The translations under genes and the position numbers were made by a program. Positions 60-31,390 of a stretch of DNA of 34,007 nucleotides are shown piece after piece. Origin of the DNA: a bacterium (lineage in GTDB: Bacteria > Krumholzibacteriota > Krumholzibacteriia > LZORAL124-64-63); NCBI GenBank assembly GCA_003353795.1, contig PIVY01000036.1:1-34007 (forward strand). Direction: 5' to 3'. Below the pieces are notes generated by a model, which was given only the letters and a program-made list of their open reading frames with translations, was not told where the DNA came from and did no database searches. Each line of letters starts with the position of its first letter. The stretch's first letter is position 1.

Positions 60-118
60 ACCCCCGGACGGGCTACTTGATCGAGGTGGTGTTCCGGACG
101 GATTGGGGGTGGTGGGCG

Positions 119-3200: not shown

Positions 3201-3390
3201 GCTGGTCATCTACGACGTCAAGGGCCGAGTCATCAAGACCCTCGTGGACACGGAACTCGAAGCGGCCACCCACACCTACCAGTGGCGCGGCCGCGACAAC
3301 CAAGGCCGCGCCACCTCAGCCGGCATCTACTTCTACAAGATCACCAGCGGTGATCACCAAGCAGTCGGGAGAATGGCGCTGATCAAGTAG
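217..3390 (+). CDS. Secreted S8 (subtilisin-like) serine protease with beta-helix region and FlgD-like C-terminal domain
   Basis: A 1057-residue secreted protease. The ATG at 217 is preceded by GGAG and begins a clear signal peptide (MKTVAALSCVVMLAIAAAASA); the in-frame ATG at 49 lies inside the hairpin repeat and is unlikely. The S8 catalytic triad is visible: Asp180 in VAVADSGVDWNHPDL, His257 in ESHGTNCAG and Ser425 in GTSFASPLTAG, with oxyanion Asn351 in AAGND. From about residue 490 to 950 there are repeated GG(G)I/GNTA-type turns typical of a right-handed parallel beta-helix. The last ~85 residues carry NPFNPATTIRFALP and end RMALIK, a FlgD-like Ig domain used as a sorting or anchoring tail in FCB-type phyla. 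It probably degrades or binds extracellular material. The substrate is unknown. The final codons lie inside a long palindrome (3377-3493). Confidence 0.9.
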   Translation: MKTVAALSCVVMLAIAAAASAVPFENASVVGHVQDRIVITVEPGVALAVDKSGGTPLTGLASIDGLTARHAVADISPLYAGIAEKFDDDELRQEMGRWYAVDFVGAVDLDEVLADYGKADGVFEARPVDICRQYGTAFLPNDLNNQYYLRNEALAGGDVRALGGWAETLGDSNVIVAVADSGVDWNHPDLGGPHPDRVNGAIWTNWDEYYGISEVDDDNNGYVDDIRGWDWVHVPGQGYPDEDDETPDNDPSDYESHGTNCAGCVAPLTNNGIGIAGTASGCKIMALRVGYLPDGESGGVVRMDWASQAFFYAAAMGARIFNASWGSSSFLSFGVREFLDNGGLIVTAAGNDSNQDASYLCGYPDGTGSEHRVLAVAATQQDDGKADFSNYGSWIDLAAPGVSIYTTAYSRFTDESTYATVQGTSFASPLTAGAAALIWSSNLNRTAAQVSQVLRFNCDNIDAANPGYEDLLGYGRVNLTKALGDDEQRVPQEFASIQDAMNCAAVGDVVKILADEILPAFTVIERDLQILGGYAADYQTRDPLGTPTMVESLPTTPVLDFYGDVTNTTVVDGFHLTGGGGRTFANIPYSGRYGGGIMLNQKSPTLRNLAVSGNSVGNASTLGLGGGIALYNSDAVLENITVTGNTAIYGGGVFVYQGSPSFSNVTLDANTLITDNLTNAPLGGGIHVIDAFVTLDDVVITGHIDSDKGGGIYAADLDGSTSVYLNGGEVSGNTAKTNGGGICALGGTIDLVDVIVSDNGKTAAATFMGGGGLYADGAIASVAGSTFDQNEAHSGSGAQFNACPEVYLAGTSFTRSTAALFGGTVYVVGCTQADLHHLTIADNSCPSGGAGLYSTNTPLTVANTISAFNTGAGATANGMSITGAATLTCNDVFGNEGAAYGGVSDPTGTDGNVALDPQFCDRGEGDYHVNPNGPCAPAHSGGCNLIGALVADCGSGIGVSDPSVPVAFRVDQSFPNPFNPATTIRFALPAAARTSLVIYDVKGRVIKTLVDTELEAATHTYQWRGRDNQGRATSAGIYFYKITSGDHQAVGRMALIK

Positions 3391-8526: not shown

Positions 8527-8566
8527 AACGACACCTCCGGTGGGCGGGCGGCTAAATGGAACCCTT

Positions 8567-8572
8567 ATTATA
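8567..8572 (-). promoter_or_regulatory. -10 element (TATAAT) upstream of the first C25 gene
   Basis: The minus strand reads a perfect TATAAT at 8572-8567, about 40 bases before the TTG start and 5' of the GGAGGT ribosome-binding site (8533-8538). No convincing -35 hexamer is found 16 to 18 bases upstream. The promoter may be activator-dependent or use a different spacing. Confidence 0.45.
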
Positions 8573-8633
8573 GCGCATGGAACAGACAAAAGCGGGTTGA
8601 AATGAGTAAACCACCTGTTTTCAACGAAGAAGA

Positions 8634-17100: not shown

Positions 17101-18774
17101 GTCGCCCATGAGGTTGTTCCACACTGACCAGATCTCCACGGCGCTGGGCTCGTTCTGCTGGTAGTTGCGGTACAGCTCGAGCTTGCCACGCGAGTGGGCG
17201 GCGCCCTGGTGGTGGTCGCCGCTGTTGATGGCGCCCTCGAACGTACCCTGGTAGTAGCAGTTGTTGTAGCGCGTGTGGGTGCCGCCGGTGGCGGTGCCGA
17301 TGGCGCCGATGGCGCCGCCGTTCGGGTTGGCGAGGAAGGCCTCGGAGCGGCACACGGTGTCGGAGCGGAAGCTGCCCGTGAGGCAGGTGGGGAAGCAGGC
17401 GAAGGGCAGGGCCAGACCGTTGTTGAGCACCGACGCATGGCCGCTGGAGAATCCGCTCATGCCGGCGAAGCCGCGATAGCCGAACATGCTGCGGCCCTGA
17501 TTGAGCCCGTTGATCATGGCCGAGGCGAAGTTGCCGCCGTAGACCTCGAGGATGTTCAGGTAGTCGGCGCCTTCCAGTTGCTGCGCCACCCACTGTCCGC
17601 AGTAGACGGTGGTGATGCCGCTGTCGCTGGGATCACCCACGATCAGGGCGCTGGTGTACCACGACGGATCGAGGGTGGGCGGCGTGGTCTCGTAGCCGAT
17701 GATCTTGGCGACGATGCCCTGAAGGTCGCTGACCGAACGGCAGCTGAGGCGGCCGACATGGACGTCTGCCAGGATGTCGTCGCCGTCGAGGCGGGCGTAG
17801 TAGTGGTCGCCCTCGCCGCCGAAGCCGGAGACGGTTTCGCTCCAGGTGGGCAGGGCGATGGTGCCGTTGGCGTCGCCCACCAGGACCACGTACTCCAGCG
17901 GCGGGTCGAGAGTCGCGTACTGGGTGCGAAGCCAGTTCTGGATGTTGTTGGCGGTGGGACCGGTGGTGCCCAGGTCGGCGACCACGACGTTGAAGCCCTG
18001 CCGGCGGCGCCAGTCGGCCAGCGGCTGGATGGCGTTGACCACCGATCCGTTGTCTGGGCAGAGGATGAGCCAGGTTCCGGGAATGTCGTTGGCGCGGGGC
18101 GCCGTCAGTTCAGCCGGCAGGTTGAGTGCGACCCCGGCCAGAAGGTGGCGCATGGATGCCGGGACGGTACGAGACGGCACCGCTGCGGCCGCGGTCCAGT
18201 CGAGGGTGATCTCCACGCGGGTGGCCACGGTCGCGGTTCGGCTACCGGCGTCGTAGCTCACCGGTCGGATCGAGAGCGACATCACCGTGACGCCGGCCAG
18301 GCTGGCCGCGTCGCCGAGAGACACCAGTTCGGGCTTTGCGGACCGGCCGGCGGTGTACCAGTCGCGGTCGACGACCAGATCGTCGGCCTGGTCGGGTTGC
18401 ACGGGCAGGAGGTCGAGGTCGGTGAGGGTGTGCGTGTCGGCGGCCAACGCGCGGACCGTGGCCTCGGCGCCGGCCGGCACGACCACGAGGCCCGACCACT
18501 CGGGCAGGCCGGGGCGGCCTTCGCGACCGGTGATGGCGCCGTCGGGCAACGTCAGCGCGGTCCAGGTGCGGCCGTCCGCGTCCAGGGTCTCGTGCTGCAG
18601 GGCGCCCAGTTCCACGACCATCCGCACGCCGCCGGCGTGCTCCTCGATCACCTCCACCGAGATGGGAGCGGCATCCGGCCGAGCAGAATCGAGCGGTATC
18701 AGGATCGGCGCGGCGGCAACCGAGGAGGCGAGCGCGGTTGCGAAGGCGAGCGAGACGACGGCGCGTGACGGCAT
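14110..18774 (-). CDS. Large secreted gingipain-like (C25) protein with multiple Ig-like modules and FlgD-like tail
   Basis: 1554 residues. The ATG at 18774 is preceded by GGGAG at seven bases and begins a signal peptide (MPSRAVVSLAFATALASSVAAA). Earlier in-frame ATGs lack a ribosome-binding site. The propeptide-like N-terminus includes GRPGLPEWSGLVVVPAGAEA. The C25-type domain contains EYVVLVGDANGTIALP, FGGEGDHYYARLDGDD, Cys464 in FPTCLTGSF and WNNLMGDPATDLW. The expected catalytic His position is Phe436 in YRGFAG, as in the paralogue where it is Tyr. Beta-rich repeats follow, including a region shared with the paralogue (GLSDFGYEQDDT, RLSICSNGWVSFGD) and an extra segment near residues 1180-1300. 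The tail has QNHPNPFNPATTIDFALP. Proteolysis is not assured. A surface adhesin or inactive enzyme is possible. Confidence 0.85.
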   Translation of the reverse strand: MPSRAVVSLAFATALASSVAAAPILIPLDSARPDAAPISVEVIEEHAGGVRMVVELGALQHETLDADGRTWTALTLPDGAITGREGRPGLPEWSGLVVVPAGAEATVRALAADTHTLTDLDLLPVQPDQADDLVVDRDWYTAGRSAKPELVSLGDAASLAGVTVMSLSIRPVSYDAGSRTATVATRVEITLDWTAAAAVPSRTVPASMRHLLAGVALNLPAELTAPRANDIPGTWLILCPDNGSVVNAIQPLADWRRRQGFNVVVADLGTTGPTANNIQNWLRTQYATLDPPLEYVVLVGDANGTIALPTWSETVSGFGGEGDHYYARLDGDDILADVHVGRLSCRSVSDLQGIVAKIIGYETTPPTLDPSWYTSALIVGDPSDSGITTVYCGQWVAQQLEGADYLNILEVYGGNFASAMINGLNQGRSMFGYRGFAGMSGFSSGHASVLNNGLALPFACFPTCLTGSFRSDTVCRSEAFLANPNGGAIGAIGTATGGTHTRYNNCYYQGTFEGAINSGDHHQGAAHSRGKLELYRNYQQNEPSAVEIWSVWNNLMGDPATDLWMSVPRQLVVEHPAALPASAGALPVTVYASSQPVADARVAIVQGDVVVAVGLTDDVGAVTLPLAAVTNGSLQVTVTGHGLMPYLGDATIGDQPHWVTLDSWQLDDTAGNGDQLVNPGEALEIDLVLRNLGTATATGVNATVTSESSWLIVTQAAAGYAAIPAGGTSSGDRAIRVAVDAAAPDQEACSLRVEVTGADGAWISRFELPVVASRLEPGDVAYSGGDPLPGTSGELVVTLSNDGGRPVAGADAVLQARSPWVAVTDSSGVWGSIAPGGDGTNAGDPFAIVIAGDCPRGHLAPLTIVLTQDDGTVRRVDITLAVGEAGITDPAGPDLYGYHAYDSGDTGYPLAPVYQWVEIDPNHGGSGTDAGLSDFGYEQDDTRTVDLPFAFRYYGVDHTRLSICSNGWVSFGDTDLAHYRNWTVPSAGSPDAMIAVFWDDLRQSGSNRVYRWHDAANHRYIVQWSRMANYHGGIQNCQVILLDPAYHPTTSGDGAIVCQYHTVTNNDNTRGYGTAGIQDHSRTDGVLYTYYADYAPGAAPLVAGTAVAYLPVGVLSLATCDVDPGYLAFAVPVDGQQNRSLHIVNNGPAGSDLNFAVSQVDPTVSGGGAKNLNGSSVVLAEDGYEPGVETTLHLSVTNGSPDDEWIIDVALDFPPGVNVLGASNMTTSNATLGWNGATGDGAEVGWNGDYIYVGFTGQATITIVAEQGLGELALPWTLQGDNYGAPPHSLAGTITLPSLAETIRVESPIAGDIWARGETRDIGWYTSVDITAVDVELTRDGATWETLAVGVPATDGAITWAVTGPVSSTCQVRVSASSDASISDTSNGVFIIQHDLTWLSLDAWSGIVPAGETVTLDASVDAAGLAEGTHEQLLIITHNGGSAVVVPVTLDVGDILPVDDLPRIVALMQNHPNPFNPATTIDFALPAAGPVDLSVYDLAGRRVAVLVTGHQPAGHHTVLWQATDRSGAPLSSGTYIYRLRTETGDHVKKLSLVR

Positions 18775-18817
18775 GGAACGGCTCCCGGTTGACGGCATCG
18801 GATCGAAGACCAGCATG

Positions 18818-18846
18818 ATTTTACAGGATCCGGGAGGATCATTGAA
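18818..18846 (-). promoter_or_regulatory. Putative promoter of the second C25 gene
   Basis: On the minus strand, TTCAAT (18846-18841) and TAAAAT (18823-18818) are 17 bases apart, about 45 bases upstream of the ATG at 18774. The -10 is close to consensus and the -35 is weak. The 169-base gap to the divergent queF must hold both promoters. A TTGACA is seen on the plus strand around 18873-18878, but without a matching -10 at normal spacing. Confidence 0.35.
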
Positions 18847-18943
18847 GGGCGTCACGGAGAAATCACGGTGAATTGACAATTTCTGGCGCCCGCGGCCGAC
18901 ACCCGTTAGCATGGCGCCAACGAACCGAGAGAAAGGATCCGCC

Positions 18944-19315
18944 ATGCCCAGCCAGCCCTCACGCGATCTCGAGGTCTTCGAGAACCCCGCCCCCGACCGG
19001 GATTACGAGATCACGTTCGACTGCCCCGAGTTCACCTGCCTGTGCCCCCTCACCGGGCAGCCCGACTTCGCACACTTCAGCATCGTCTACATTCCCGACA
19101 AGATTTGCGTCGAGTTGAAGTCGTTGAAGCTGTACCTGTGGAGCTTTCGAAACGAGGGTGCCTTCCACGAGAAGGTCACCAACCAGATCCTCGACGACCT
19201 CGTGGCGGCTTGCTCGCCGCGCATGATGGAGGTCAACGGAGAGTGGTTCGTTCGCGGCGGCATCACGACCGAGGTGCGGGCGACGTTCGTGGATCCGGGA
19301 TGGGGCGGCGAATGA
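18944..19315 (+). CDS. queF: NADPH-dependent 7-cyano-7-deazaguanine reductase QueF
   Basis: 123 residues, the short unimodular type. It reduces preQ0 to preQ1 in queuosine biosynthesis in the cytoplasm. The catalytic segment is [14 protein letters not shown]: Cys34 forms the thioimide with preQ0 and Asp41 is the proton donor by family analogy. [20 protein letters not shown] matches the substrate-binding stretch of the family (VESKSLK in other members). The start at 18944 has AAAGGA six bases upstream; an in-frame ATG at 18911 lacks one. Another queuosine gene, queG, lies 2.4 kb further on the opposite strand, so the pathway is partly clustered. It is convergent with the adenylate kinase gene, with five bases between the stops. 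Confidence 0.93.
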
Positions 19316-20734: not shown

Positions 20735-21733
20735 TCAACCGGTGGCAAGCGTGATCGGCAGCGGGGTGCTGCACGACGGACACTCCGGCGTGGTGAGATG
20801 CACCGTCGTCCGATACCCGCGCCGCTCGATCACCGACACTCCGCACTCGGGACAGCGAGTATTGTTCCACGCCGGCAGGTGAAGATTCCCGGTGAATACA
20901 TACCGCAGTCGATCCGCACACAGAGCGGCCGCACGCTCGAGAGTCGCCGGCGGAGTCGCCGGTGCGTCGAACCGAAACTCCGGACGATACGCGGACAGGT
21001 GCAGCGGAATATCCACCGAAAGATCGGCCACGAAGTCGCGGAGCCTGGCGAAGTGATCCACCGTGTCGTTGTGCCCGGGGATCACCAGGTTCGTCACCTC
21101 CACGTGAACGCCGGCCTCGTGCAGCGCGACGATGTTGGCCAGCACCGGATCCAGCTGACCCTTGCACACCTCGCGGTAGAAGCTGTCGTCCATGCTCTTG
21201 AGGTCGACGTTAGCGGCGTCCAGCAGCGGGATCAGTTCGGCGATGGGTTCGGGGTTGAGGTAGCCGTTGGTCACCACCACGTTCACCAGCCCGGCCTCGC
21301 GCGCCAGCCGCGCCGTGTCGCGGACGAATTCGAACCAGACCAGCGGTTCGCTGTAGGTGAAGGCGATACCCACCGACGCGTGCTGCTTCGCGAGGGCCAC
21401 CACGTCGGCTGGTGAGAGGTCGTCGGTGCGGCCATGCAGGGTCTGGCTGATCTGCCAGTTCTGACAGAAGGCGCAGTGCAGGTTGCAGCCCTTGGCGGCC
21501 ACCGAAAGGATGGGCTGGCCGGGGAGGTAGTGGTAGAGCGGTTTCTTCTCCATGGGGTCGAGGCCCGTGGCCACGACCTGACCGTACTGCAGCGGTAGCA
21601 TGCGGCCCTCGCGGTTGCCGCGAGTCCCGCACTGGCCATCCTGACCATCGCCCAGAACGCAGCCCACCGGGCAGAGCTCGCAGGCCACCCTGCGGTCGGT
21701 CGCCGTCTGCCAGTACGCCGCTTCACCGCTCAT
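20735..21733 (-). CDS. amrS: AmmeMemoRadiSam-system radical SAM enzyme
   Basis: 332 residues. The radical SAM cluster motif CxxxCxxC is at Cys83, Cys87 and Cys90 (KGCNLHCAFCQNWQIS). The N-terminal cysteine pattern (CELCPVGC, then CGTR) and PLYHYLPGQPILSVA are typical of AmrS, the radical SAM member of the AmmeMemoRadiSam set, which is related to pyruvate-formate-lyase activating enzymes. The C-terminal CPECG and CPSCSTPLP add a zinc-ribbon-like element. The start ATG overlaps the queG stop by four bases (ATGA), so it is the third gene of the NPD-queG-amrS operon. The usual partners (AmmeMemo and AMMECR1 proteins) are not in this window. The reaction catalysed is not established. Confidence 0.88.
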   Translation of the reverse strand: MSGEAAYWQTATDRRVACELCPVGCVLGDGQDGQCGTRGNREGRMLPLQYGQVVATGLDPMEKKPLYHYLPGQPILSVAAKGCNLHCAFCQNWQISQTLHGRTDDLSPADVVALAKQHASVGIAFTYSEPLVWFEFVRDTARLAREAGLVNVVVTNGYLNPEPIAELIPLLDAANVDLKSMDDSFYREVCKGQLDPVLANIVALHEAGVHVEVTNLVIPGHNDTVDHFARLRDFVADLSVDIPLHLSAYRPEFRFDAPATPPATLERAAALCADRLRYVFTGNLHLPAWNNTRCPECGVSVIERRGYRTTVHLTTPECPSCSTPLPITLATG

Positions 21734-22857
21734 GCCGGCTCCTCCAGTCGGTTCACGGCCCAGGCTGCCACGGCGCGGACCTCGGGATCGGGATCCTCGC
21801 TGGCGGCGCGTCTCACCTCGTCCAGAAGATCGACCCGACCGGTGTTCGCGGCCACCACCAGGGCGTTGCGCCGCAGGCCCTCGGGATGCGCACGCCAGAG
21901 CGGCGTGCGCCGGAAACGCTCCCGGAACCCCTCGGCGTCCAGGCCGATCAGGCCGGCGAGGTCGATCTCGGCGTGGGCCTGCAGCGGCGCGTAGGCGTCG
22001 CGAGGCGTCGGTCTGCCGGCGGCGCCCCGCAGCGCCTTGCCGTTCCACGGACACACCTGCTGGCAGACATCGCAGCCGAACAGGTGGTCGCCCTGTCGGT
22101 CGCGCTCGTCGGCGGGCGCGCGGCCCTGCCACTCGATGGTCCAGGTGCTGAGACAGCGGCCGGCGTCGAGGACCCGTGCGTCGATGAACGCGTCGGTGGG
22201 GCAGGCGTCGAGACAGCGTGTGCAGGAGCCGCAGCGGTCGGTATCCTCCCGCGGAAGCGATCCGCGGGCCGCGACTTCGAACAGCGGATGCGGAGCCCCG
22301 GTCCAGTCGGAGAGGACCAGGTTGGTGGGCGCCACGGCCAGGAACATCCCCGAGCCCAGGGTCTCGTGGATGAGGCAGGTGTTCTTGCCCACGAATCCCA
22401 GGCCAGCGCGTACCGCCCAGGCGCGTTCCAGGTACGGCCCGGTATCCACCGCCGGGTGCGCCTCGAGCTCCGGCCAGGTCTCGCGAAGGTCTCGCAGCAC
22501 AGCCTTGACGGCCGCGAGCAGGACGTCGTGATAGTCGCTCCCCCGCGCGTAGCGGGAGACACCCCGCATCCAGTCCTGCGCTTCGTCAGGCGCCGGCCAG
22601 CCGTCGGTGTAGCGCTGGGCGAAGATCAGCAGCGACTTCGCCCACGGATTGCGCACCCGCGGGTCGGCGCGCTCGTCGCGGGTGCGCGCGAGATACTCGA
22701 GGTCGCCGTGGAGATCGTCGTCGAGCCAGCGGCGCCAGTGTTCTGCACCCGGTGCAGGGCCGTCCAGCGGCACGGCGCCGGCCAGGTCGATGCCGCGGGC
22801 CGGGCAGAGTTCGGCCAGACGCCGCGCCAGTTCGGCTGCGGATCCCGCCGGGCTCAT
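21730..22857 (-). CDS. queG: Epoxyqueuosine reductase QueG
   Basis: 375 residues. It catalyses the last step of queuosine formation in tRNA, reducing epoxyqueuosine with a cobalamin cofactor and two 4Fe-4S clusters. Cluster motifs are visible as CGSCTRCLDACPTDAF and CDVCQQVCPWN. The upstream part has the family string WAVRAGLGFVGKNTCLI with TGPYLERA. The C-terminus has HEAT-like helices (GLRRNALVVAANTG, EVRAVAAWAVNRL) seen in many QueG proteins. Its ATG overlaps the end of the upstream flavoenzyme gene by four bases, and its stop overlaps amrS, so the three are co-translated. queF lies nearby. Confidence 0.93.
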   Translation of the reverse strand: MSPAGSAAELARRLAELCPARGIDLAGAVPLDGPAPGAEHWRRWLDDDLHGDLEYLARTRDERADPRVRNPWAKSLLIFAQRYTDGWPAPDEAQDWMRGVSRYARGSDYHDVLLAAVKAVLRDLRETWPELEAHPAVDTGPYLERAWAVRAGLGFVGKNTCLIHETLGSGMFLAVAPTNLVLSDWTGAPHPLFEVAARGSLPREDTDRCGSCTRCLDACPTDAFIDARVLDAGRCLSTWTIEWQGRAPADERDRQGDHLFGCDVCQQVCPWNGKALRGAAGRPTPRDAYAPLQAHAEIDLAGLIGLDAEGFRERFRRTPLWRAHPEGLRRNALVVAANTGRVDLLDEVRRAASEDPDPEVRAVAAWAVNRLEEPA

Positions 22858-23804
22858 GCCCCGGCCAGTCTGGTCACGGCCGCCGTATAATCGGTCGACA
22901 TGCGCGCGACGACCTCGGCCACCGTGGGCACGTCGTCGATGAGGCCCGAGACCTGACCGATCTCGAGCTCGCCCTCGTCGAGGTCGCCCTCCAGCATGCC
23001 GCGGCGGGCGCGCCCCTGCCCCAGCAGTTCCTGGAGTTCGTCGCGATCGGCGCCGCGGGCCTCGGCTTCCGCGACCTGCTCGAAGAAACGATTGCGCAGC
23101 AGGCGCACCGGGACGTGGCGCTTCATGGCGAGCATGGTGTCGCCGGCCCCGGCCTCCACCACCGCCTGCTTGAACGCCTCGTGGCCGCTGGATTCGCGGG
23201 TCACGGCGAAACGCGACCCTACCTGGACGCCGTCCGCGCCCAGGGCCATGGCCGCCGCCCACTGGCCTCCCGTGGCGATCCCGCCGGCAGCCACCACGGG
23301 GATGTTCACCGCCTGCACGCACTGGGGCACCAGCACCATGGTGGTCAATTCCTCGCGGCCGTTGTGTCCGCCCGCCTCGAATCCCTCGCAGATCACCGCA
23401 TCGCAGCCCGCGTCCTCGCACTTGACGGCCAGCTCCGGGCTGGCCACCACGTGCAGCACGGTGCAGCCGGCCTTCTTCAGGACCCCGATGGCGCGCTTCG
23501 GCGAGCCGGCGCTGGTGACGAAGATCGTCACACCGTCGGCCACGGCCAGCTCCACCACCTCGCGGCTGTGGGGGTAGAGAAGCGGCACGTTCACGCCGAA
23601 GGGTCGGTCGGTGAGGGACCGGCACTTGGCCAGCTGCTCGCCGAAGAGGTCGGGGCGCATGCTGCCCGAACCGAGCAGTCCGAGGCCACCGGCATTGGAT
23701 ACGGCGGCGGCAAGTTTGGCCCCGCTCATGTAGATCATGCCGCCCTGGATGACGGGAAGATCGATGCCGAGCAGGCGGCAGAGTCGGTTGTCGGACCAGT
23801 TCAC
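22854..23804 (-). CDS. Nitronate monooxygenase / FabK-like FMN-dependent oxidoreductase
   Basis: 316 residues from a GTG start at 23804, placed seven bases after AGGGA. No well-placed ATG exists. The TIM-barrel FMN family is shown by the N-terminal PVIQGGMIYMSGAKLAAAVS and AGGLGLLGSG, the middle CEGFEAGGHNGREELTTM, and the phosphate-binding VPVVAAGGIATGGQWAAAM followed by GADGVQVGSRF. Nitronate monooxygenases and FabK-type enoyl-ACP reductases share these features and cannot be separated by eye. The GGHNG...LTTM..VPQ stretch is compatible with either. It is the first gene of the overlapping operon with queG and amrS. Confidence 0.82.
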   Translation of the reverse strand: MNWSDNRLCRLLGIDLPVIQGGMIYMSGAKLAAAVSNAGGLGLLGSGSMRPDLFGEQLAKCRSLTDRPFGVNVPLLYPHSREVVELAVADGVTIFVTSAGSPKRAIGVLKKAGCTVLHVVASPELAVKCEDAGCDAVICEGFEAGGHNGREELTTMVLVPQCVQAVNIPVVAAGGIATGGQWAAAMALGADGVQVGSRFAVTRESSGHEAFKQAVVEAGAGDTMLAMKRHVPVRLLRNRFFEQVAEAEARGADRDELQELLGQGRARRGMLEGDLDEGELEIGQVSGLIDDVPTVAEVVARMSTDYTAAVTRLAGA

Positions 23805-24105
23805 CAGGCAGTCCCTTCGCCGATTTCGAGGCCGGACATTGCTCCCGGAAGGCTCCGCCGGAGCGGATCCGTGAACCGAGAACGATTCTTGCAAACGGAC
23901 TTTCGCGAGGCCCACGGCATGGCGAGCATACGCCTCTGCGCGCCGCCGTGGCCAACGGAATCGCCACTGGAGAATACCAGATGCCGTTGATCCAGAATAC
24001 CTTGCGAGCGTCGACCGTGCAAAATCCACCTTTGAAGTTCGCGCCGATTGTCGCCTATGTTTGCGCCACAGTACGACCCGTCAGTCCGTTCTTCTGGAGG
24101 TTCTC
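23805..24105. other. 301-base divergent intergenic region
   Basis: No convincing gene is present. It separates the minus-strand NPD operon from the plus-strand cytochrome locus and should hold both promoters. The plus-strand promoter candidate is listed separately. For the minus strand, TTGGCC and TATGCT occur with a spacing of 19 bases in the middle of the region, which is only a weak candidate. A small GC-rich stem (ggctccgccggagc) lies near the NPD start. Confidence 0.6.
24032..24061 (+). promoter_or_regulatory. Putative promoter of the electron-conduit genes
   Basis: TTGAAG at 24032-24037 and TATGTT at 24056-24061 are 18 bases apart, about 45 bases before the decaheme cytochrome ATG. Each matches four of six consensus positions. 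The GGAGGT ribosome-binding site follows at 24097-24102. Confidence 0.4.
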
Positions 24106-25029
24106 ATGCGGAGAATGATCTGCCTCGTCTGCAGCCTCGCGGTCCTGGTCGCAGGACCGGCCGCCTGGAGCGGCGAGTATCTCGATGGCATCGAGGTCCC
24201 CGCCGACGCGACCTACGTCGGGTCGGAAGACTGCCTCGCTTGCCACGAAGAAGTCGGCGAGTTCTACGCCCACTCTCCCCACCTGCCCGAACTCGGCCTT
24301 TCGGTTCCTGGCCGGGCCGACATCTTCGGCTGCGAGGCTTGCCACGGTCCCGGCAGTCTGCACGTCGACGAGGGCGGCGACGGCTGGATCATGGGCCTCG
24401 ACATCATGCGGGCGCTGGACGACGTGAGCCGCGCTAACATGTGCACCCAGTGCCACCTGAGCCTGGACCTGCAGTATGCCGACGGTCCGCACGCGGGCAC
24501 CGAGGTCTCGTGCGCCGATTGCCATGCCGACCAGGTTCACTTCGGCGGCCAGGCCCGACCGGCCAACGAGTACCGCAACCGCTCCGAGTTCTGTCTGCAG
24601 TGCCACACGGCGGTGTCCGCAGCGTTCCGGCTGCCGTTCCGGCACCGCGTGCTCGAGGGCGACATCGGTTGTGCCGATTGCCACGACCACCACGGCGGCA
24701 ACGACCGCACCACCTGGGAAGGCGCCAATGCCACCTGCCTGAGCTGCCACAACCAGATGGCCGGCCCGTTCGTGTTCGAGCACGGCGGCACCACGGGCGA
24801 GCAGTGCACCAGCTGCCACCTGCCCCACGGATCGCACAACGACAAGCTGCTCACCCAGGACGGCAACGGTCTCTGCCTGCAGTGCCACTACGAGGTGGTC
24901 AATGGGGATCCCAGCTTCGACTTCGGCGGCGTCCCCCACAACGGTCTGCTCCAGGGCGAGGCCCGCTGCTACGACTGCCACCGCGAGATCCACGGTTCCA
25001 ACGTGTCCCCGTCCTTCCGGGACCAGTAA
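24106..25029 (+). CDS. Periplasmic decaheme c-type cytochrome (DmsE/MtrA-like)
   Basis: 307 residues from an ATG four bases after GGAGGT; an in-frame TTG at 24061 lacks a site. A signal peptide spans about residues 1-23. Exactly ten CxxCH heme motifs begin at Cys43, 76, 113, 136, 163, 189, 211, 234, 257 and 288, the count and approximate size of MtrA and DmsE. GPFVFEHGG followed by CTSCHLPHGSHNDKLL and LCLQCH is the DmsE-family hallmark. In Shewanella-type conduits, such a protein sits in the outer-membrane barrel and passes electrons from the periplasm to a surface cytochrome. The barrel gene follows after 12 bases. The electron donor is not encoded here. Confidence 0.92.
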   Translation: MRRMICLVCSLAVLVAGPAAWSGEYLDGIEVPADATYVGSEDCLACHEEVGEFYAHSPHLPELGLSVPGRADIFGCEACHGPGSLHVDEGGDGWIMGLDIMRALDDVSRANMCTQCHLSLDLQYADGPHAGTEVSCADCHADQVHFGGQARPANEYRNRSEFCLQCHTAVSAAFRLPFRHRVLEGDIGCADCHDHHGGNDRTTWEGANATCLSCHNQMAGPFVFEHGGTTGEQCTSCHLPHGSHNDKLLTQDGNGLCLQCHYEVVNGDPSFDFGGVPHNGLLQGEARCYDCHREIHGSNVSPSFRDQ

Positions 25030-25041
25030 GGAGGCAAGGTC

Positions 25042-26949
25042 ATGAAGACGATCATCACGACGACCGCGCTGATCCTGGTCCTGGCGACGGCCGCGCTGGC
25101 CGGACCGACCCTGCCGGCCCAGGCCCAGCGCATCTGGGCGCCAGAAGGCGACCTGATCAGCTACGACCAGAACCATGCCACGGCGACCCTGATCATCAAC
25201 GACGACCACGGCGACTGGGCCAAGGCCGCCGAGGACTGGGCCATCCGGGGCAAGACCTTCGGCTACGGTCTGTTCAACTACCAGCACACCAGCGACAGCA
25301 ACCATCAGCTCAACGTGCGCGGTGACGGCGGCAACGTCCCCGGCAGCGGCCTGGCGGGCAACGTCGGCCTCTGGTCGTCCACACCCGGCAAGTACCGCGT
25401 GCGCCTGCTCTACAGCAAGCACGACCACTACTACGATCGCGACAGCGAACTGCGCAACCCGGGCTTCCCCTATCCGCCCGAGCCGCCGGCGCTTTCGGAT
25501 TCGCCGCACCTCGACTGGCGCCGCGGCCGACTCGACCTGAGCTGGCACCTTTCCAGCGCCTTCGACGTGACCTTCGGCATTGCCGACCTGCGCCGCGAGG
25601 GCAGCAAGGGCAGCCTGCTTCGCGGAACCTCGGGCGAGGCGCCTCCGGCGGTGCTGAGCCAGAAGACCAAGCAGTACGAAGTGTACCTCGGTGGCGTGTT
25701 CCGGGCCGGCAACCTCGGCGGCGGGTTGACCCTCGCCATGCGCAACGCCGACGGCTGGCGGACCCGCAGCGGGACCAACGGCCACGACTACGACGAGGAG
25801 CGTAAGAGCTACCGCGCCGCCCTCGACCTGGCCTACGACGTGTCCGGCGGCACGCGCCTGGCCGCCTACGGCGCCCTCAATCGCCTCGAGCTCAATGGCC
25901 GGGAGATCTGGGGCGGCGGCGACGGCTCGACCAACAGCGACTCCGAGAACGCGGTGGGCCTGCTGGCTCTGCAGACCCGGCTGGGTCGCAAGACCAACCT
26001 GCTCGCGTCGGCCCGCTTCGAGGGGCTCAAGAACGAGTCCCAGATCGACGACATGGCCGGCGTGCTCTACGCCGGCGACACCGATCGCCAGCGGCAGGAC
26101 TACCGCCTCGTGCTCGGCAACACCAGCCTGCCCCGCACCCGCCTGCGCCTGCAGTACCGCTACACCAACGCCGACCGCGAAGGCGTCACGAGCCAGGATG
26201 GACGGCCGGGCGAACCCACCGTGACGGTGGCCCAGGGCCTGAACGAGAATCGCGTCCGCCACGACGTCGACTTCCGGGCCAACGCCAACCTGAGCAAGGC
26301 CGTGAAGTTCAAGCTGGGCGTGCGGTACAACAAGCAGGACGTCGAGCAGACGGCCTCGGGCGACGACTGGTACGGCATCCTCGGCGACCACAATCGGTCG
26401 CGCCTGGGCTGGACGGCGGCCCTCAAGACCCGCCCGCATCCCAATGTACCGGTAGACCTGGGCTACCAGGGCATCGACCAGACCTTCGAGCGCACCGCCG
26501 GCGAACTGGCCGAGACCACCTGGAAAGCCAACCGCCTGTTCCTCAACATCAACTGGATCGCCAGCGCCCGGCTGTCGATGTACGGCATGGTCAACTACGG
26601 CAAGGAGACCTACGAGCTCACCGGCGTGGGCGACCCCGCTGCCGGCCAAGCCGCGTACGAATACGATGGTCAGACCTGGCGTTTCATTCCCGGTGCGGTG
26701 TTCCACGTCACCAATACACTGGAGCTCGAGGGCATGTGGGAAGGCATCCGGTACGAGAACACCGGCAGCGAGACGGCTGCCCTCGATGCCGTGAAGGCCG
26801 ACCACGACCGGGCGCTGGTGAGGGCCCGCTGGCAGACCACCCCGAAGTTCGCCGTCACGGCGAGCTACCGGCGCAACGAGTTCTTCGAGAACCGGTGGGA
26901 TAACTACATCCAGGATCTCTGGGGATTGTCGGTATCTGGCCTGTTCTGA
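25042..26949 (+). CDS. MtrB/PioB-like outer-membrane beta-barrel of a porin-cytochrome conduit
   Basis: 635 residues. The ATG at 25042 follows GGAGG by eight bases. A signal peptide (MKTIITTTALILVLATAALA) precedes a long chain of alternating hydrophobic and polar residues with repeated aromatic strand ends, such as YRVRLLYSKHDHYYDR, LRLQYRYTNADREG and KFKLGVRYNKQDV. The chain ends in Phe (LWGLSVSGLF), as outer-membrane barrels do. Size and position directly after a decaheme cytochrome fit the MtrB/PioB sheath that surrounds the cytochrome. The N-terminal CxxC seen in some MtrB proteins is absent. ExtI-type channels of Geobacter are an alternative relative. The barrel assignment is firm; the exact family is less so. 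Confidence 0.82.
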   Translation: MKTIITTTALILVLATAALAGPTLPAQAQRIWAPEGDLISYDQNHATATLIINDDHGDWAKAAEDWAIRGKTFGYGLFNYQHTSDSNHQLNVRGDGGNVPGSGLAGNVGLWSSTPGKYRVRLLYSKHDHYYDRDSELRNPGFPYPPEPPALSDSPHLDWRRGRLDLSWHLSSAFDVTFGIADLRREGSKGSLLRGTSGEAPPAVLSQKTKQYEVYLGGVFRAGNLGGGLTLAMRNADGWRTRSGTNGHDYDEERKSYRAALDLAYDVSGGTRLAAYGALNRLELNGREIWGGGDGSTNSDSENAVGLLALQTRLGRKTNLLASARFEGLKNESQIDDMAGVLYAGDTDRQRQDYRLVLGNTSLPRTRLRLQYRYTNADREGVTSQDGRPGEPTVTVAQGLNENRVRHDVDFRANANLSKAVKFKLGVRYNKQDVEQTASGDDWYGILGDHNRSRLGWTAALKTRPHPNVPVDLGYQGIDQTFERTAGELAETTWKANRLFLNINWIASARLSMYGMVNYGKETYELTGVGDPAAGQAAYEYDGQTWRFIPGAVFHVTNTLELEGMWEGIRYENTGSETAALDAVKADHDRALVRARWQTTPKFAVTASYRRNEFFENRWDNYIQDLWGLSVSGLF

Positions 26950-26978
26950 TCTTTAACCCCCATTCAGCCCGTTTCAAG

Positions 26979-27005
26979 AAGGCCCCGCAAATGCGGGGCC
27001 TTTTT
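26979..27005 (+). terminator. Intrinsic terminator after the barrel gene
   Basis: aaggccccgc pairs with gcggggcctt around a short loop (26979-27002), followed by a run of T residues (27001-27005). It lies 30 bases after the barrel gene, so the decaheme-barrel pair and the downstream TetR-cytochrome unit have separate transcription ends, apart from read-through. Confidence 0.85.
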
Positions 27006-27066
27006 CTCCGCTATAACTCGCTGCAGTGTTTGAAGTTCGATTCTGTTTTCAAGTGAATATCTTTGA

Positions 27067-27121
27067 TTGACAGCACATAAACAGGTCTCCATCTTGCAGT
27101 GAGTCAACGTTCGCTAACTCA
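27067..27121 (+). promoter_or_regulatory. Promoter and candidate TetR operator
   Basis: A perfect TTGACA is at 27067-27072; the -10 at 17 to 18 bases is weak. A 22-base dyad at 27100-27121 has half-sites TGAGTCAACG and CGCTAACTCA (8 of 10 positions symmetric). It would cover the start of transcription and lies 25 bases before the TetR gene. A looser TTGAA/TTCAA dyad occurs further upstream. The dyad is the natural candidate for autoregulation by the TetR protein. Confidence 0.45.
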
Positions 27122-27146
27122 GACCAATTAAGGATGCCTTTAGCGC

Positions 27147-27794
27147 ATGTCCGCTACCAACGGCAACCGTAGCCAGCAGATCCTCTCCCGGGCGACCGAC
27201 CTGTTCGCCAAGCACGGGTATGCCGGCACGTCCATCCGTCGGATCGCCCGGGCATGTGGCATCACCGAGGCCGCCATCTACCGCCATTTCCAGAGCAAGA
27301 TGCATCTCTACGAAGAGGTCATCCGGGCCAAGGCGGCCCAGCACGACATTGCCGGATACCTGTCGGAACATGCCGGCCAGGGCTCGGTGCGCGATGCGCT
27401 GATCGCCGTGTCGAGTCATGTCATGAAGCTCACCCACGAGGACCCTGCCCTCGTGCGGCTGATGTTCAACAACAGCCTCGAGAGCGGCGACGTGCCCACC
27501 GTGCTCTTCCAGGAGATCCGCGTGCCCTACATCGAATTCCTCACGCAGGAGTTCGAGCGGCGCATGCAGGAGGGTGAAATCATGCCGGTGGAGGCCTTCC
27601 TCACCGGCCGCTGCTTCGTGGGCATGGTCATGGACTGCGCCCTGAATCTCGGGATCTGGAACACGCTGTTCCCGTCCCGGAATCAACCCGTCGACATCTA
27701 CACCAACACCGCAACGATCTTTGCCAACGGACTGACCAAATCCAGTGACGCCACGACATCGCGTGCCGCGTCCAAACCGGGGAGTACCTCATGA
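27147..27794 (+). CDS. TetR-family transcriptional regulator
   Basis: 215 residues. The N-terminal DNA-binding region is standard: RSQQILSRATDLFAKHGYAG followed by TSIRRIARACGITEAAIYRH and FQSKMHLYEEV. The C-terminal ligand-binding half is helical and not assignable to a ligand. The gene stop overlaps the start of the cytochrome gene by four bases (ATGA at 27791-27794), so the regulator and the cytochrome are translated together. The 22-base dyad at 27100-27121 is the likely operator. The context suggests control of the extracellular electron-transfer genes in response to a small molecule or redox metabolite. Confidence 0.88.
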   Translation: MSATNGNRSQQILSRATDLFAKHGYAGTSIRRIARACGITEAAIYRHFQSKMHLYEEVIRAKAAQHDIAGYLSEHAGQGSVRDALIAVSSHVMKLTHEDPALVRLMFNNSLESGDVPTVLFQEIRVPYIEFLTQEFERRMQEGEIMPVEAFLTGRCFVGMVMDCALNLGIWNTLFPSRNQPVDIYTNTATIFANGLTKSSDATTSRAASKPGSTS

Positions 27795-29389
27795 TGCAGC
27801 GATCGATCCTGGTCGTCCTGCCGCTTCTGGTCCTGGCCGCGCTCTGGGGGTGCGATAACGACACCTCCAACGACGTTGCCGGGCCTCCGGGCGGCGGCAG
27901 CACCGACAAGACGTGTATCGGCTGTCACTCCAGCGAGGCCGAGCTCAAGGCCGCGCTGGGAGTCGACGACAAGGGACTGGCCTCCAAGAAGGATCTGGCC
28001 CTGAAGTTCGCCAACAAGGACGACGGCTGAGGCGGCTCAGTACCCGAGCTGGAAGCTTGGGAAAAGGTCATCATCACCGGTTCCAACGGCGATCGGTTCC
28101 TCAACAGCATCCACGGCCCCGGCTACGAGGGCACGGACAACCCGACGCCCCATACGTTGACGTGCCAGCATTGCCACGCCGGCGCCCCGGACTTCGGGTT
28201 CAACACCATGGAAGAGGCCCACACGGGAATGTTCCGCGACCCCAGTGTGCCCGGCGAGACCGGCTGCACGGCCTGCCATGAGGAGAGCTTCGCGCGGTCG
28301 GCCTGCGACCAGTGCCACACCAACGCGGTCACCGTCACGGCCACCAGCCTGCACACCACGTTGCAGGGTTACAAGACGGCTATCGAGGATCGTTGCGGAC
28401 GTGACTTCGACGACCTGGGTATCGAAGAGCCCTTCGAGGTGCGTTGCGCCGGCTGCCACACCACGTGCGGCCAGTGCCACGTCTCGCGCCCCAACTCGGT
28501 GGGCGGTGGTTTCCCGAAGATCGGCGCGTACTACTCGCACCGCTTCCGCCAGTCGCCCGACATGAACGAGCAGTGCACCGCCTGCCACGGCAGCCGCGTG
28601 GGCGTCGACTTCAAGGGCGAACTCGAAGGCAACGTGCCCGACGTGCACCGCACCGCCGGCCAGCAGTGCAACTACTGCCACGGCAAGGACGAGATCCACG
28701 GCGACGGCACCGAGTACGACCACCGCTACGAGGTGGCCAACATGCCCCGCTGCGAGAACTGCCACGAGAGCGACATCCAGGTCCCCGCGGGAACCGGCGA
28801 CTGCACGTCGTGCCATCCGGACGGCTTCGGCAGCGCCACGGTCTCGGCCGCCGACAAGAATCACGCCCACCACGGTGGCGTGTCCGTCGACTGCAGTCAC
28901 TGTCACGATCCCGTGCCGGGCGTGTCCCTGCCGGTGGCGCAGTGCCAGACCTGCCACTCGCAGCCCTACAAGAACTGCACGAACTGCCACAACCTGACCG
29001 ACGAGGGCTTCGACATCAACGAGAGCATCGTGCAGCTCAAGATCGGGCGCAATCCGAGCCCGCATCGCGCCGAGTACGACATCGCGATCGTGCGGCACAC
29101 GCCCATCGATCCCAACACCTTCGCCAACTGGGGCCTCGACCTGCCCGACTACCTGACGAAGTCGACCTGGCAGTACGCGTCGCCTCACAACGTCCTGCGC
29201 TCCACCCCGCAGACCACGGTGGAGGCCGGCCAGTCCTGCGCCGCCAGTTGCCATGGTTCGCCGGATGGTCCGCAGGGATACCTGCTCAGGGAAACCGACC
29301 TCTACGAAGCCGACGGAACCACGCCGCTGGTCGACTACCAGGCCAACATCGACTACGTGATTCCCGAGAGCTTCCCGGCAGGAAAGTAG
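27791..29389 (+). CDS. Lipoprotein multiheme c-type cytochrome with in-frame UGA, probable selenoprotein
   Basis: Read as one frame of 532 residues with TGA at 28028-28030 decoded (residue 80). The start ATG follows GGAG by six bases. Signal peptide and lipobox end at LAALWGC (Cys21), giving a lipoprotein. CxxCH motifs begin at Cys42 before the UGA, and at Cys125, 159, 172, 219, 226, 262, 293, 321, 338, 368, 385 and 396 after it: 13 in all. An unusual CX3CH (CAASCH) begins at Cys483. Frame, codon use and heme spacing continue unchanged across the TGA. The downstream part has no ribosome-binding site or sensible start of its own. A SECIS-like hairpin follows the TGA. The alternatives are a recent nonsense mutation or a sequencing error. 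By position it is the extracellular cytochrome of the conduit. Confidence 0.72.
28043..28061 (+). promoter_or_regulatory. Candidate bacterial SECIS element
   Basis: cccgagct at 28043-28050 pairs with agcttggg at 28054-28061, eight pairs including one G-U, closing a GGA loop at 28051-28053. The stem begins 12 bases and the loop 20 bases after the TGA at 28028-28030. Bacterial SECIS elements are stems just downstream of the UGA with a G at the start of the apical loop, about 16-37 bases from the codon, so this fits. It is weaker than a proven SECIS because the loop is only three bases. Selenocysteine genes are not in the window. Confidence 0.5.
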
Positions 29390-29404
29390 ATCGTCCGCTA
29401 GAAC

Positions 29405-29480
29405 GGCCGGGGTCACCCGTCGATCCCGGCCAGCACCTTGGAAGCGCGGCTCTTCCGCGTGACTATCCGGCCCGCGGGCC
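29405..29480 (+). promoter_or_regulatory. Structured leader between the cytochrome and rhodanese genes
   Basis: Three stems are crowded into the 107-base gap: ggccggg (29405-29411) with cccggcc (29425-29431); cgcgg with ccgcg around a five-base loop (29445-29459); and the 12-base palindrome ggcccgcgggcc (29469-29480) just before the GGAG ribosome-binding site of the rhodanese gene. This may tune expression relative to the cytochrome or protect transcript ends. No U-tract marks any of them as a terminator. Confidence 0.35.
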
Positions 29481-29496
29481 ACACTGAGGAGTAGCA

Positions 29497-31335
29497 ATGA
29501 AACTTCACAAGACTTGGCTCATCCTGATGCTGGTCGCCCTGGTGGCCTTCATGGGTTGTTCGGACGACGACGATCCCGTGACGCCTCCCGGCGCGACCGA
29601 CTTCGAGACCATGGCTGCCGCCGGCACGGCATACGTCAACGACAACACCATCTGCCCGGGCGTCATCAACGCTCAGGTGGTGTACGACAACCTCGCTGAC
29701 TACACGGTCATCGACATCCGCTCCGAGGCCGCCTACCTGGCCGGCCACATCCCCGGCGCCTACCACAGCGGCCTCAGCACCCTGATCGCCGACCTGGCCA
29801 ACATCCCCAGTGACAAGCCCTACGTGATCGCGTGCTACAGCGGCCAGTCGGCCGGCCATGCCAAGATCGCCATGGAGATGCTGGGCTATGAGGACGTCTA
29901 CAGCCTGCTCTTCGGCATGTCCTCCTGGAGCCTGGACCTCGACAGCTGGTCCGGCAAATGCGCCAACGAGCTGGCCGTCGCCGAGACCGACCCCCAGAAC
30001 GACAACCTCACCGAGCACAGCTTCCCCGAGATCGCCGGCTCCGTCGAGGAGCGCGTGGCCGCCATGCTGGCCGCCGGCTTCAAGGCCAAGAGCTACGCCG
30101 ACATTGAGACCAACCTGGAAGAATACTTCATCCTCAACTACTTCGGCGAAGACGACTACCTGGGTGACGGCGAGGCCGGCGTCCCGGGACACATCCCCGG
30201 CGCCTTCCAGTTCACGCCGTACGCCAGCATGGGCATGGACGAGATGCTCATGAACATCCCCATGGACATGCCCGTGATCGTCTACTGCTGGACCGGTCAG
30301 CACTCGAGCCAGATCACCGCCTACCTGAACATGTGCGGATACGAGGCCTATAGCCTCAAGAACGGTTCGAACAACCTGTTCTACGACGCCCTGACCGCCC
30401 ACAAGTGGGGCCCCGGTGCGCAGCACGACTTCGAGCTCGAGACCGGCGCCATGCCCGACGAGACCTTCGAGACCATCGCCACGGCGCTGGCCGACTACCT
30501 GAACGACTCGGCCGACTGCCCGGGCGTGGTCAACGCTCAGGTCGTCTACGACAACCTCGAGGACTACACGGTCATCGACATCCGGCAGCTGGTCGACTAC
30601 GACGCTGGTCACATCGCCGGCGCGTACCACAGCAGCCTCGCGACCCTGCTGACCGACGTCGGCACCACCATCCCCACCGACAACCCGTTCGTGATCGCTT
30701 GCTACAGCGGCCAGAGCGCGGGCCACGCCAAGATCGCCATGGAGTTGGCGGGCTACGAGAACACCCAGAGCCTGCTCTTCGGCATGTCCTCCTGGAGTTC
30801 GGACCCCGACCTCGACAAGTGGACCTCCAAGTGCCTGAACCTCCTGCCCGTGGCCGAGACCGAGAACCAGAACGGCGACCTCGTGGGCTACAACTACCCC
30901 TCGCTGACCGGTGAGACGGTGGCTTCGCGGGTGGACGCCATGCTGGCCGCCGGCTTCAAGGCTACCAGCTACACGGCCATCCAGGACAACCTGGAAGACT
31001 ACTTCATCGTCAACTACTTCGGTGAGGCCGACTACCTGGGTGACGGCGATTCCGGCGTCCCGGGCCACATCCCCGGCGCGTTCCAGTTCACGCCGTATGC
31101 GAGCATGGGCCTGGGCCAGATGCTGGCCAACCTGCCCACCGACATGCCGATCGTGGTCTACTGCTGGACCGGTCAGCACTCCAGCCAGGTCACCGCATAC
31201 CTGAACATGCTGGGATACGATGCCTACAGCCTGGCCAACGGCTCCAACAACCTGTTCTACGACAGCCTGACGGCCCACAAGTGGGGCCCCGGCGCCATGC
31301 ACGACTTCCCGCTGGAAGTGACGCCGGGCAAATAG
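29497..31335 (+). CDS. Lipoprotein with four rhodanese domains (ExtH-like)
   Basis: 612 residues. The ATG at 29497 follows GGAG. The signal peptide ends in a lipobox (VAFMGC, Cys21), so the protein is anchored to a membrane, probably the outer one. It contains two tandem copies of a ~290-residue unit, each with two rhodanese domains. Active-site cysteines are Cys113 and Cys402 (ACYSGQSAGHAK) and Cys264 and Cys556 (YCWTGQHSSQ); all four are kept. VIDIR strings and GHIPGA/GHIAGA loops are classic rhodanese features. Rhodaneses carry sulfur (or selenium) as a persulfide on the active Cys. A rhodanese lipoprotein is, as I recall, the first gene of the Geobacter extHIJKL conduit. Here it follows the cytochrome. 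Its role in electron transfer is unknown. Confidence 0.9.
   Translation: MKLHKTWLILMLVALVAFMGCSDDDDPVTPPGATDFETMAAAGTAYVNDNTICPGVINAQVVYDNLADYTVIDIRSEAAYLAGHIPGAYHSGLSTLIADLANIPSDKPYVIACYSGQSAGHAKIAMEMLGYEDVYSLLFGMSSWSLDLDSWSGKCANELAVAETDPQNDNLTEHSFPEIAGSVEERVAAMLAAGFKAKSYADIETNLEEYFILNYFGEDDYLGDGEAGVPGHIPGAFQFTPYASMGMDEMLMNIPMDMPVIVYCWTGQHSSQITAYLNMCGYEAYSLKNGSNNLFYDALTAHKWGPGAQHDFELETGAMPDETFETIATALADYLNDSADCPGVVNAQVVYDNLEDYTVIDIRQLVDYDAGHIAGAYHSSLATLLTDVGTTIPTDNPFVIACYSGQSAGHAKIAMELAGYENTQSLLFGMSSWSSDPDLDKWTSKCLNLLPVAETENQNGDLVGYNYPSLTGETVASRVDAMLAAGFKATSYTAIQDNLEDYFIVNYFGEADYLGDGDSGVPGHIPGAFQFTPYASMGLGQMLANLPTDMPIVVYCWTGQHSSQVTAYLNMLGYDAYSLANGSNNLFYDSLTAHKWGPGAMHDFPLEVTPGK
29602..31310 (+). 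repeat. Internal tandem duplication within the rhodanese gene
   Basis: The segments of about 29602-30455 and 30463-31310 encode the same two-domain unit and remain similar at the DNA level. For example, blocks encoding GHIPGAFQFTPYASMG (near 30187 and 31066) and SLLFGMSSWS (near 29906 and 30773) are almost identical. The spacing between equivalent cysteines is 289 to 292 codons. The duplication therefore occurred on top of an older two-rhodanese protein. Edges are approximate. Confidence 0.8.
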
Positions 31336-31362
31336 GCGCCACCACTGCGACGAAGACGAGAA

Positions 31363-31390
31363 GGGAGGGCCCCCCGCGGGCCCTCCCTAC
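31363..31390. terminator. Bidirectional intrinsic terminator
   Basis: gggagggccc at 31363-31372 pairs perfectly with gggccctccc at 31378-31387, followed by tactttta. It lies between the convergent rhodanese (plus) and HD-domain (minus) genes and can end both transcripts. Confidence 0.85.

What the first reader, a model, noticed from the sequence alone, without database searches (positions are those of the whole stretch)
24106..31335. Complete ext-like extracellular electron conduit in an FCB-type genome
The order is decaheme DmsE/MtrA-like cytochrome, MtrB/PioB-like barrel, TetR, lipoprotein cytochrome (13-14 hemes) and rhodanese lipoprotein. The first two match porin-cytochrome conduits. The rhodanese lipoprotein plus channel plus large lipoprotein cytochrome matches my recollection of Geobacter extHIJKL, but the order and partners differ. 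The neighbours carry NPFNP/FlgD-tail proteins, arguing for a lineage not classically known for metal respiration.
Basis: partly seen in the sequence, partly recalled or inferred. Interest (0 to 1): 0.82.

Follow-up and report, generated by a model that had tools for sequence, protein, structure and literature searches.

The report
Selenocysteine multiheme cytochrome with rhodanese partner
This bacterium (candidate phylum Krumholzibacteriota) carries an outer-membrane electron conduit next to a heme-rich lipoprotein that uses the rare amino acid selenocysteine and is tied to a sulfur-transfer (rhodanese) partner, an apparently uncatalogued selenoprotein family found in many phyla that points to sulfur or selenium chemistry coupled to extracellular electron transfer.

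Summary
All five genes are present. The decaheme and barrel are an MtrA/MtrB-type pair: the decaheme's best solved relative is MtrA 6r2q_A, and the modelled barrel's best match is MtrB 6r2q_B (TM 0.66/0.64). The lipoprotein cytochrome (27791-29389) has an in-frame TGA at 28028-28030, followed by a SECIS-like hairpin. Of 80 relatives (MAG titles from about ten phyla), 76 carry TGA at this column and none has Cys. Codon choice favours the hairpin. The genome has tRNA-Sec, SelA, SelB and a SelD that itself contains TGA. So this is a selenoprotein, in a family absent from a 119-family 2026 catalogue and from NCBIfam.

A rhodanese gene is adjacent in 73 of 76 TGA loci; two of the three misses are contig ends. 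On the tree, Sec was lost four times. Each time the hairpin is gone and no rhodanese is detected, while SelB is kept. I infer that Sec and rhodanese handle sulfane sulfur (or selenium) on a cytochrome wired to an MtrAB conduit.

It is not Geobacter extHIJKL: ExtH and ExtKL models fail, ExtKL's Sec site differs, and the barrel is MtrB-like. It resembles ext only in parts: rhodanese, a Sec cytochrome, and an ExtM-like heme body. Substrate and direction are unproven.

The parts
24106..25029 (+). Periplasmic decaheme cytochrome, MtrA/DmsE/GSU2203-like
   Evidence: 10 CXXCH; NF041028 192.9 bits (cut-off 325), TIGR03508 182.8 bits (cut-off 192.2); best PDB relative 6r2q_A, MtrA, E 6.5e-29
25042..26949 (+). 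Outer-membrane beta-barrel of MtrB type
   Evidence: AF2 pLDDT 82, about 26 strands; Foldseek best hit 6r2q_B (MtrB) E 1.7e-15, TM 0.66/0.64, next hits TM 0.44 or lower; PF11854 in 5 of 19 homologs; window protein has no Cys
26979..27005 (+). Terminator-like hairpin AAGGCCCCGC-AAAT-GCGGGGCCTT-TTT between barrel and TetR
   Evidence: read directly from sequence; not listed by the consensus scan, so a suggestion only
27147..27794 (+). TetR-family regulator, overlaps the cytochrome start by 4 nt
   Evidence: PF00440 E 2.4e-17; position conserved before the cytochrome in nearly all in-phylum homologs
27791..29389 (+). Selenocysteine-containing multiheme lipoprotein cytochrome (532 aa, Sec80, 13 CXXCH + 1 CX3CH)
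   Evidence: lipobox LWGC; read-through translation; family alignments
28028..28030 (+). In-frame TGA = selenocysteine codon (motif DG-U-GG)
   Evidence: TGA in 76 of 80 relatives at the same column, never Cys; SelA, SelB, SelD and tRNA-Sec in the genome
28043..28061 (+). SECIS-like hairpin CCCGAGCU-GGA-AGCUUGGG
   Evidence: 97.3% of cells paired versus 20-50% when slid, one CG/AU double change; synonymous-codon test p=0.002 in the window, 70% of 76 loci at p<=0.05 versus 4% of control stretches
29497..31335 (+). Lipoprotein with four rhodanese domains, active-site loops CYSGQSA and CWTGQHS
   Evidence: PF00581 E 2.1e-46, 4 stretches; lipobox FMGC; adjacent to the cytochrome in 73 of 76 Sec loci
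31362..31388 (+). Terminator-like hairpin after the rhodanese
   Evidence: 11-pair stem; consensus match only

Best explanation
The locus holds two units. One is an MtrA-MtrB-type conduit that carries electrons across the outer membrane. The other is a TetR-controlled pair: a lipoprotein multiheme cytochrome with an active selenocysteine, and a multi-domain rhodanese lipoprotein. Most likely mechanism: the rhodanese takes sulfane sulfur (polysulfide, elemental sulfur or thiosulfate; possibly selenium oxyanions) onto its active-site Cys and passes the chalcogen to Sec80 of the cytochrome. The heme chain, wired to MtrAB, then delivers (or accepts) the electrons that cleave (or form) the Se-S bond. 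Shown here: gene content, conservation of TGA and hairpin, a complete Sec machinery, MtrA/MtrB likeness, adjacency and concerted absence of Sec and rhodanese. Inferred: chalcogen transfer to Sec, reductive direction, outer-face location, contact with MtrAB.
For: Single in-frame TGA at one column in 76 of 80 relatives across many phyla. Compensatory hairpin and codon-choice test. SelA 451.5, SelB 331, SelD 352.4 bits over cut-offs, SelD itself with one TGA, tRNA-Sec with anticodon tca. Rhodanese adjacent in 73 of 76, with one rhodanese-cytochrome fusion ORF (L144). Four independent Sec losses, all without detected rhodanese, all keeping SelB. MtrA/MtrB. Alignment of 70 members: 11 invariant heme sites but only 10 further invariant His, so one heme has no conserved His sixth ligand, compatible with a reactive site near Sec.
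Against: No substrate is shown. Sec-to-rhodanese chemistry rests on co-occurrence, and four independent losses cannot reach 0.05 in a sign test. The two distant Sec-less genomes were searched genome-wide with one protein query, so a diverged rhodanese could be missed there. L106 has Sec but no rhodanese. Sec-less relatives keep the decaheme and barrel, so Sec is not needed for conduction. Deca-barrel are missing beside the cytochrome in other families. No fold match for the cytochrome in PDB.
Confidence: 0.55

Rival explanations
1. The TGA is an assembly error or a broken gene; the rest is an ordinary cytochrome.
For: The source is a fragmented MAG (953 contigs, 86% complete).
Against: The same TGA occurs in 76 of 80 independent assemblies with a downstream hairpin kept by synonymous codon choice; Sec machinery present.
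Confidence: 0.01
2. The module is a selenite/tellurite (or metal) reductase working like the Geobacter ext cluster, with the rhodanese binding selenium rather than sulfur.
For: Same kinds of parts as ext (rhodanese, Sec cytochrome, ExtM-like hemes); deletion of extI causes a severe selenite/tellurite reduction defect (PMC6148476, PMC5877670).
Against: The Sec site, rhodanese and barrel are not the ext ones; the ext phenotype belongs to ExtI, which is absent here.
Confidence: 0.2
3. The electron flow is oxidative: the rhodanese and Sec cytochrome oxidise sulfide or sulfane sulfur at the surface and MtrAB brings electrons in.
For: Rhodanese chemistry is reversible; nothing in the sequence fixes direction; decaheme-barrel pairs of this kind serve inward flow in iron oxidisers (general knowledge of PioAB/MtoAB).
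Against: Sec is mostly used in anaerobic pathways under reducing conditions (PMC13188914); no sulfur-oxidation genes were seen in the window.
Confidence: 0.15
4. The Sec-rhodanese pair is a detoxification or repair side-arm (persulfide or peroxide removal) protecting an ordinary Mtr-type metal-reducing conduit.
For: Sec-less relatives keep decaheme and barrel beside the cytochrome, so the arm is separable.
Against: In other families the Sec cytochrome-rhodanese pair stays while the MtrAB pair is gone, so it is not an accessory of that conduit.
Confidence: 0.1

Closest known systems
Geobacter extHIJKL(MNOPQS) cluster
   Same: Rhodanese lipoprotein (ExtH), a predicted Sec cytochrome (ExtKL), barrel, TetR in some clusters (PMC6148476); ExtM heme body distantly homologous to the window cytochrome
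   Different: Sec sits near the C-terminus of a non-lipoprotein pentaheme (GH.IPDG-U-PTPNR) in ExtKL, not after the first heme of a lipoprotein (DG-U-GG); the barrel is MtrB-like, not ExtI; no ExtKL match here
MtrCAB porin-cytochrome conduit (Shewanella, 6R2Q)
   Same: Decaheme MtrA-like plus 26-strand MtrB-like barrel
   Different: The lipoprotein cytochrome is not reported by the OmcA/MtrC model and carries Sec; rhodanese partner
GSU2203-GSU2204 decaheme/barrel pair
   Same: Best NCBIfam model for the decaheme (192.9 bits); weak hit for the barrel (20.9 bits)
   Different: Both below curated cut-offs; the window barrel has no Cys, CXXCH or Sec, whereas GSU2204 is itself a listed selenoprotein family
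Octaheme tetrathionate reductase (1SP3, TIGR04315)
   Same: Partial profile match E 4.5e-8; Sec-bearing members are listed in PMC13188914
   Different: Short, weak match in heme-motif regions; N-terminal Sec motif not shared in the aligned stretch

Membership tests
Bacterial selenoprotein | In-frame UGA conserved across species at one column | tested here: met
   76 of 80 relatives; 26 of 28 same-phylum loci plus the window
Bacterial selenoprotein | SECIS hairpin just 3' of UGA | tested here: met
   absent in the four Sec-less relatives
Bacterial selenoprotein | SelA, SelB, SelD, tRNA-Sec in the genome | tested here: met
Bacterial selenoprotein | Cys homologs at the Sec site | tested here: not met
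   none found; exceptions have Gln, Trp, Arg or no motif. Usual supporting evidence, not a requirement
Bacterial selenoprotein | Sec shown in the protein | not testable with these tools
   needs MS or 75Se
Geobacter extHIJKL | ExtKL Sec cytochrome (NF040886) | tested here: not met
   no match of the window cytochrome; different Sec motif
Geobacter extHIJKL | ExtH rhodanese (NF040901, cut-off 200) | tested here: not met
   18.1 bits
Geobacter extHIJKL | ExtI porin | tested here: not met
   no ExtI hit in NCBIfam; barrel matches MtrB fold
Geobacter extHIJKL | ExtM cytochrome (NF040943, cut-off 800) | tested here: not met
   19.9 bits, though hhalign prob 99.4 to ExtM: distant homolog, not a member
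MtrAB porin-cytochrome pair | MtrA/DmsE-type decaheme | tested here: met
   6r2q_A E 6.5e-29; TIGR03508 just under cut-off (182.8/192.2)
MtrAB porin-cytochrome pair | MtrB-type barrel | tested here: met
MtrAB porin-cytochrome pair | Decaheme inserted in the barrel | not testable with these tools
   no complex modelling available
MtrCAB | MtrC/OmcA-type surface cytochrome (TIGR03507) | tested here: not met
   not reported for P0001; 4 of 70 relatives at weak E

The most novel reading that the evidence does not exclude
A widespread, undescribed class of surface-exposed selenoenzyme in which Sec sits at the one heme without a conserved His sixth ligand, is loaded with sulfane sulfur by a dedicated rhodanese, and does extracellular sulfur (or selenium) respiration in many phyla, plugging into different outer-membrane conduits.
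Probability: 0.3. Interest if true: 0.9.

Novelty: new variant of a known kind. Interest (0 to 1): 0.78.

Why it matters
It appears to add a selenoprotein family to the catalogue: one that standard gene calling cuts in two and separates from its signal peptide, and one with no Cys homologs found, so Cys/Sec-pair methods would miss it. It links Sec, a sulfurtransferase and a multiheme chain in a co-lost unit, and gives a concrete testable hypothesis for extracellular sulfur or selenium respiration in lineages not known for it (Krumholzibacteriota, KSB1, Neomarinimicrobiota, Phycisphaerae, Chloroflexota).

Tried and rejected
Rfam scan of 23-32 kb: no SECIS family hit, only chance matches. Whole-region folding-energy test with synonymous codons was weak (median z -1.0); a hairpin-specific test was decisive. 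Foldseek of the cytochrome model against PDB gave nothing. hmmsearch of the barrel profile against PDB sequences gave only chance hits; fold comparison was needed. Considered and rejected: pseudogene or assembly error (conserved TGA), TGA reassignment (barrel, TetR and most neighbouring genes end in TGA), ExtKL membership. PF03264 (quinol-oxidising NapC/NirT type) gives only weak hits in the genome (31 bits), so the inner-membrane end of the chain is unresolved. One recent selenoprotein paper (PMC12013261) is not held.

Full report
Observation. Translation confirms the five genes on the + strand at the stated place. The decaheme (24106-25029) has 10 CXXCH, the barrel (25042-26949) has none, TetR (27147-27794) overlaps the next start codon by 4 nt, and the rhodanese lipoprotein (29497-31335) holds four rhodanese domains. 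The lipoprotein cytochrome starts at ATG 27791 with a lipobox (LWGC) but meets an in-frame TGA at 28028-28030, then runs on to TAG at 29387-29389. A standard gene caller would split it into a short N-terminal fragment (79 codons before the stop) and a leaderless 410-aa cytochrome.

The stop is a selenocysteine codon. In 80 genomes of the phylum, homologs in other genomes nearly all carry exactly one in-frame TGA. At the aligned column 26 of 28 loci plus the window have TGA; the two exceptions have CAA (Gln, L049/L080) and TGG (Trp, L064/L095). A scan of 84,980 species genomes found 251 relatives; the best 80 were kept. 76 of these 80 have TGA at the same place, in the motif G[ED]G-U-GG.V..LE.WE; the others have Gln, Trp, Arg and no motif, and none has Cys. 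Titles of the source MAGs span Krumholzibacteriota, Eisenbacteria, Phycisphaerae, KSB1, Neomarinimicrobiota, Chloroflexi, Acidimicrobiia, Gemmatimonadetes, Calditrichota and Thermodesulfobacteriota (MAG labels, not verified by me).

Twelve bases after the TGA lies an 8-bp hairpin with a 3-nt loop (28043-28061). On 23 aligned sequences 97.3% of pair cells are paired, against 20-50% when one side is slid, with one pair switching CG (15) to AU (8). More distant relatives keep a hairpin there with other stem sequences, such as GUGCCUCCGUUGGAGGCAUGG and GUGGUUCCGUUGGAACCAUGG. When codons are redrawn synonymously, the hairpin at this place is better than expected (p<=0.05) in 70% of 76 sequences, against 4% of control stretches from the same genes; the window gives p=0.002; the four Sec-less relatives have no hairpin. 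The genome has tRNA-Sec with anticodon tca, SelA, SelB, and SelD which itself contains one TGA, a known selenoprotein and thus a positive control. TGA is otherwise a stop here: the barrel, TetR and most neighbouring genes end in it.

Coupling to the rhodanese. A rhodanese gene is adjacent, mostly within 200 bp downstream and sometimes upstream, in 73 of 76 TGA loci; two of the three misses are contig ends. In L144 rhodanese and cytochrome form one reading frame. The three Sec-less loci with room have no rhodanese within about 8-10 kb. Genome-wide, none of the four Sec-less genomes (G042, G066, G084, G085) gives a rhodanese hit to the window protein, while the sisters G041, G061 and G068 do; for G084 and G085, which are distant, this single-query search is less sensitive. 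All four keep SelB. A maximum-likelihood tree needs four separate Sec losses, and in all four independent contrasts the rhodanese goes the same way. Four contrasts cannot give significance in a sign test, so this is strong but not conclusive. One counter-case, L106, has Sec but a FAD disulfide-reductase-like gene in the rhodanese position.

The conduit. The decaheme's closest solved relative is chain A of the Mtr complex 6R2Q, which I take to be MtrA although the record's molecule name is wrong (E 6.5e-29). The barrel is poorly recognised by sequence, but the AlphaFold2 model (pLDDT 82, about 26 strands) matches MtrB 6r2q_B best by a wide margin. The order decaheme-barrel-TetR-cytochrome-rhodanese holds across the window's family; in other families the TetR-cytochrome-rhodanese block stays without this decaheme and barrel, and elsewhere the pair sits near other barrels and multiheme genes. 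Sec-less relatives keep decaheme and barrel. Hence I read two modules: an electron conduit and a Sec-rhodanese chemistry unit.

Anatomy of the cytochrome. Across 70 members, 11 heme sites (10 CXXCH, one CX3CH), Sec80 and 10 further His are invariant. One heme therefore has no conserved His sixth ligand. Whether Sec80 is near it is a hypothesis; the model (pLDDT 83, pTM 0.81) could not be measured.

Comparison with known systems. Geobacter extHIJKL also has a rhodanese lipoprotein and a predicted Sec cytochrome (PMC6148476, PMC5877670). I fetched true ExtKL loci: their Sec motif is GH.IPDG-U-PTPNR near the C-terminus, unlike DG-U-GG after the first heme here, and the window cytochrome is not detected by the ExtKL model. 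ExtH and ExtM cut-offs are missed, although the heme body is distantly homologous to ExtM (hhalign probability 99.4; heme motifs inflate such scores). So it works like ext in outline but is not a member. The 2026 inventory of 119 prokaryotic selenoprotein families lists ExtKL, GSU2204 and octaheme tetrathionate reductase as its multiheme or CXXCH entries and nothing matching this motif (PMC13188914), and none of 70 family members is matched by the ExtKL model at E<=0.01, nor comes near the ExtM cut-off.

Mechanism. Best supported: the rhodanese collects a sulfane sulfur (or selenium species) and hands it to Sec80; hemes supply or drain electrons through the MtrAB-type conduit. Probability about 0.97 that the TGA codes for Sec, about 0.85 that Sec and rhodanese work together, about 0.55 for the whole picture, less for any given substrate. 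Direction is not fixed by the data.

Noticed in passing
L144:795-2489: A Chloroflexi MAG encodes rhodanese and the Sec cytochrome in one reading frame (through the TGA), a fusion of the two partners.
   Followed up: partly
L106:6414-7775: In a Phycisphaerae MAG the gene after the Sec cytochrome is not a rhodanese but looks like a FAD/NAD disulfide reductase (CoA-disulfide/NADH-dependent sulfur reductase type, judged by eye).
   Followed up: partly
L191 (own genome C77:2981-3901): The genome's SelD has an in-frame TGA, so it is probably a selenoprotein itself.
   Followed up: no
window 4528-8589 (-), 14110-18945 (-), 49-3390 (+): Two gingipain-like peptidase C25 proteins and a subtilase, all with FlgD_ig C-terminal domains (sorting-tail type), crowd the left of the window.
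   Followed up: no
window 8784-11711 (-): A 975-aa TPR plus CHAT-domain protein, possible protease effector or regulator.
   Followed up: no
L097, L098 in the tree: Cytochromes from MAGs labelled Gemmatimonadales and Deltaproteobacteria (Myxococcota) fall inside the Krumholzibacteriota clade: transfer or mislabelled MAGs.
   Followed up: no
window 20735-24029 (-): A radical SAM protein, QueG-like epoxyqueuosine reductase and a nitronate monooxygenase lie just upstream on the other strand; probably unrelated housekeeping.
   Followed up: no
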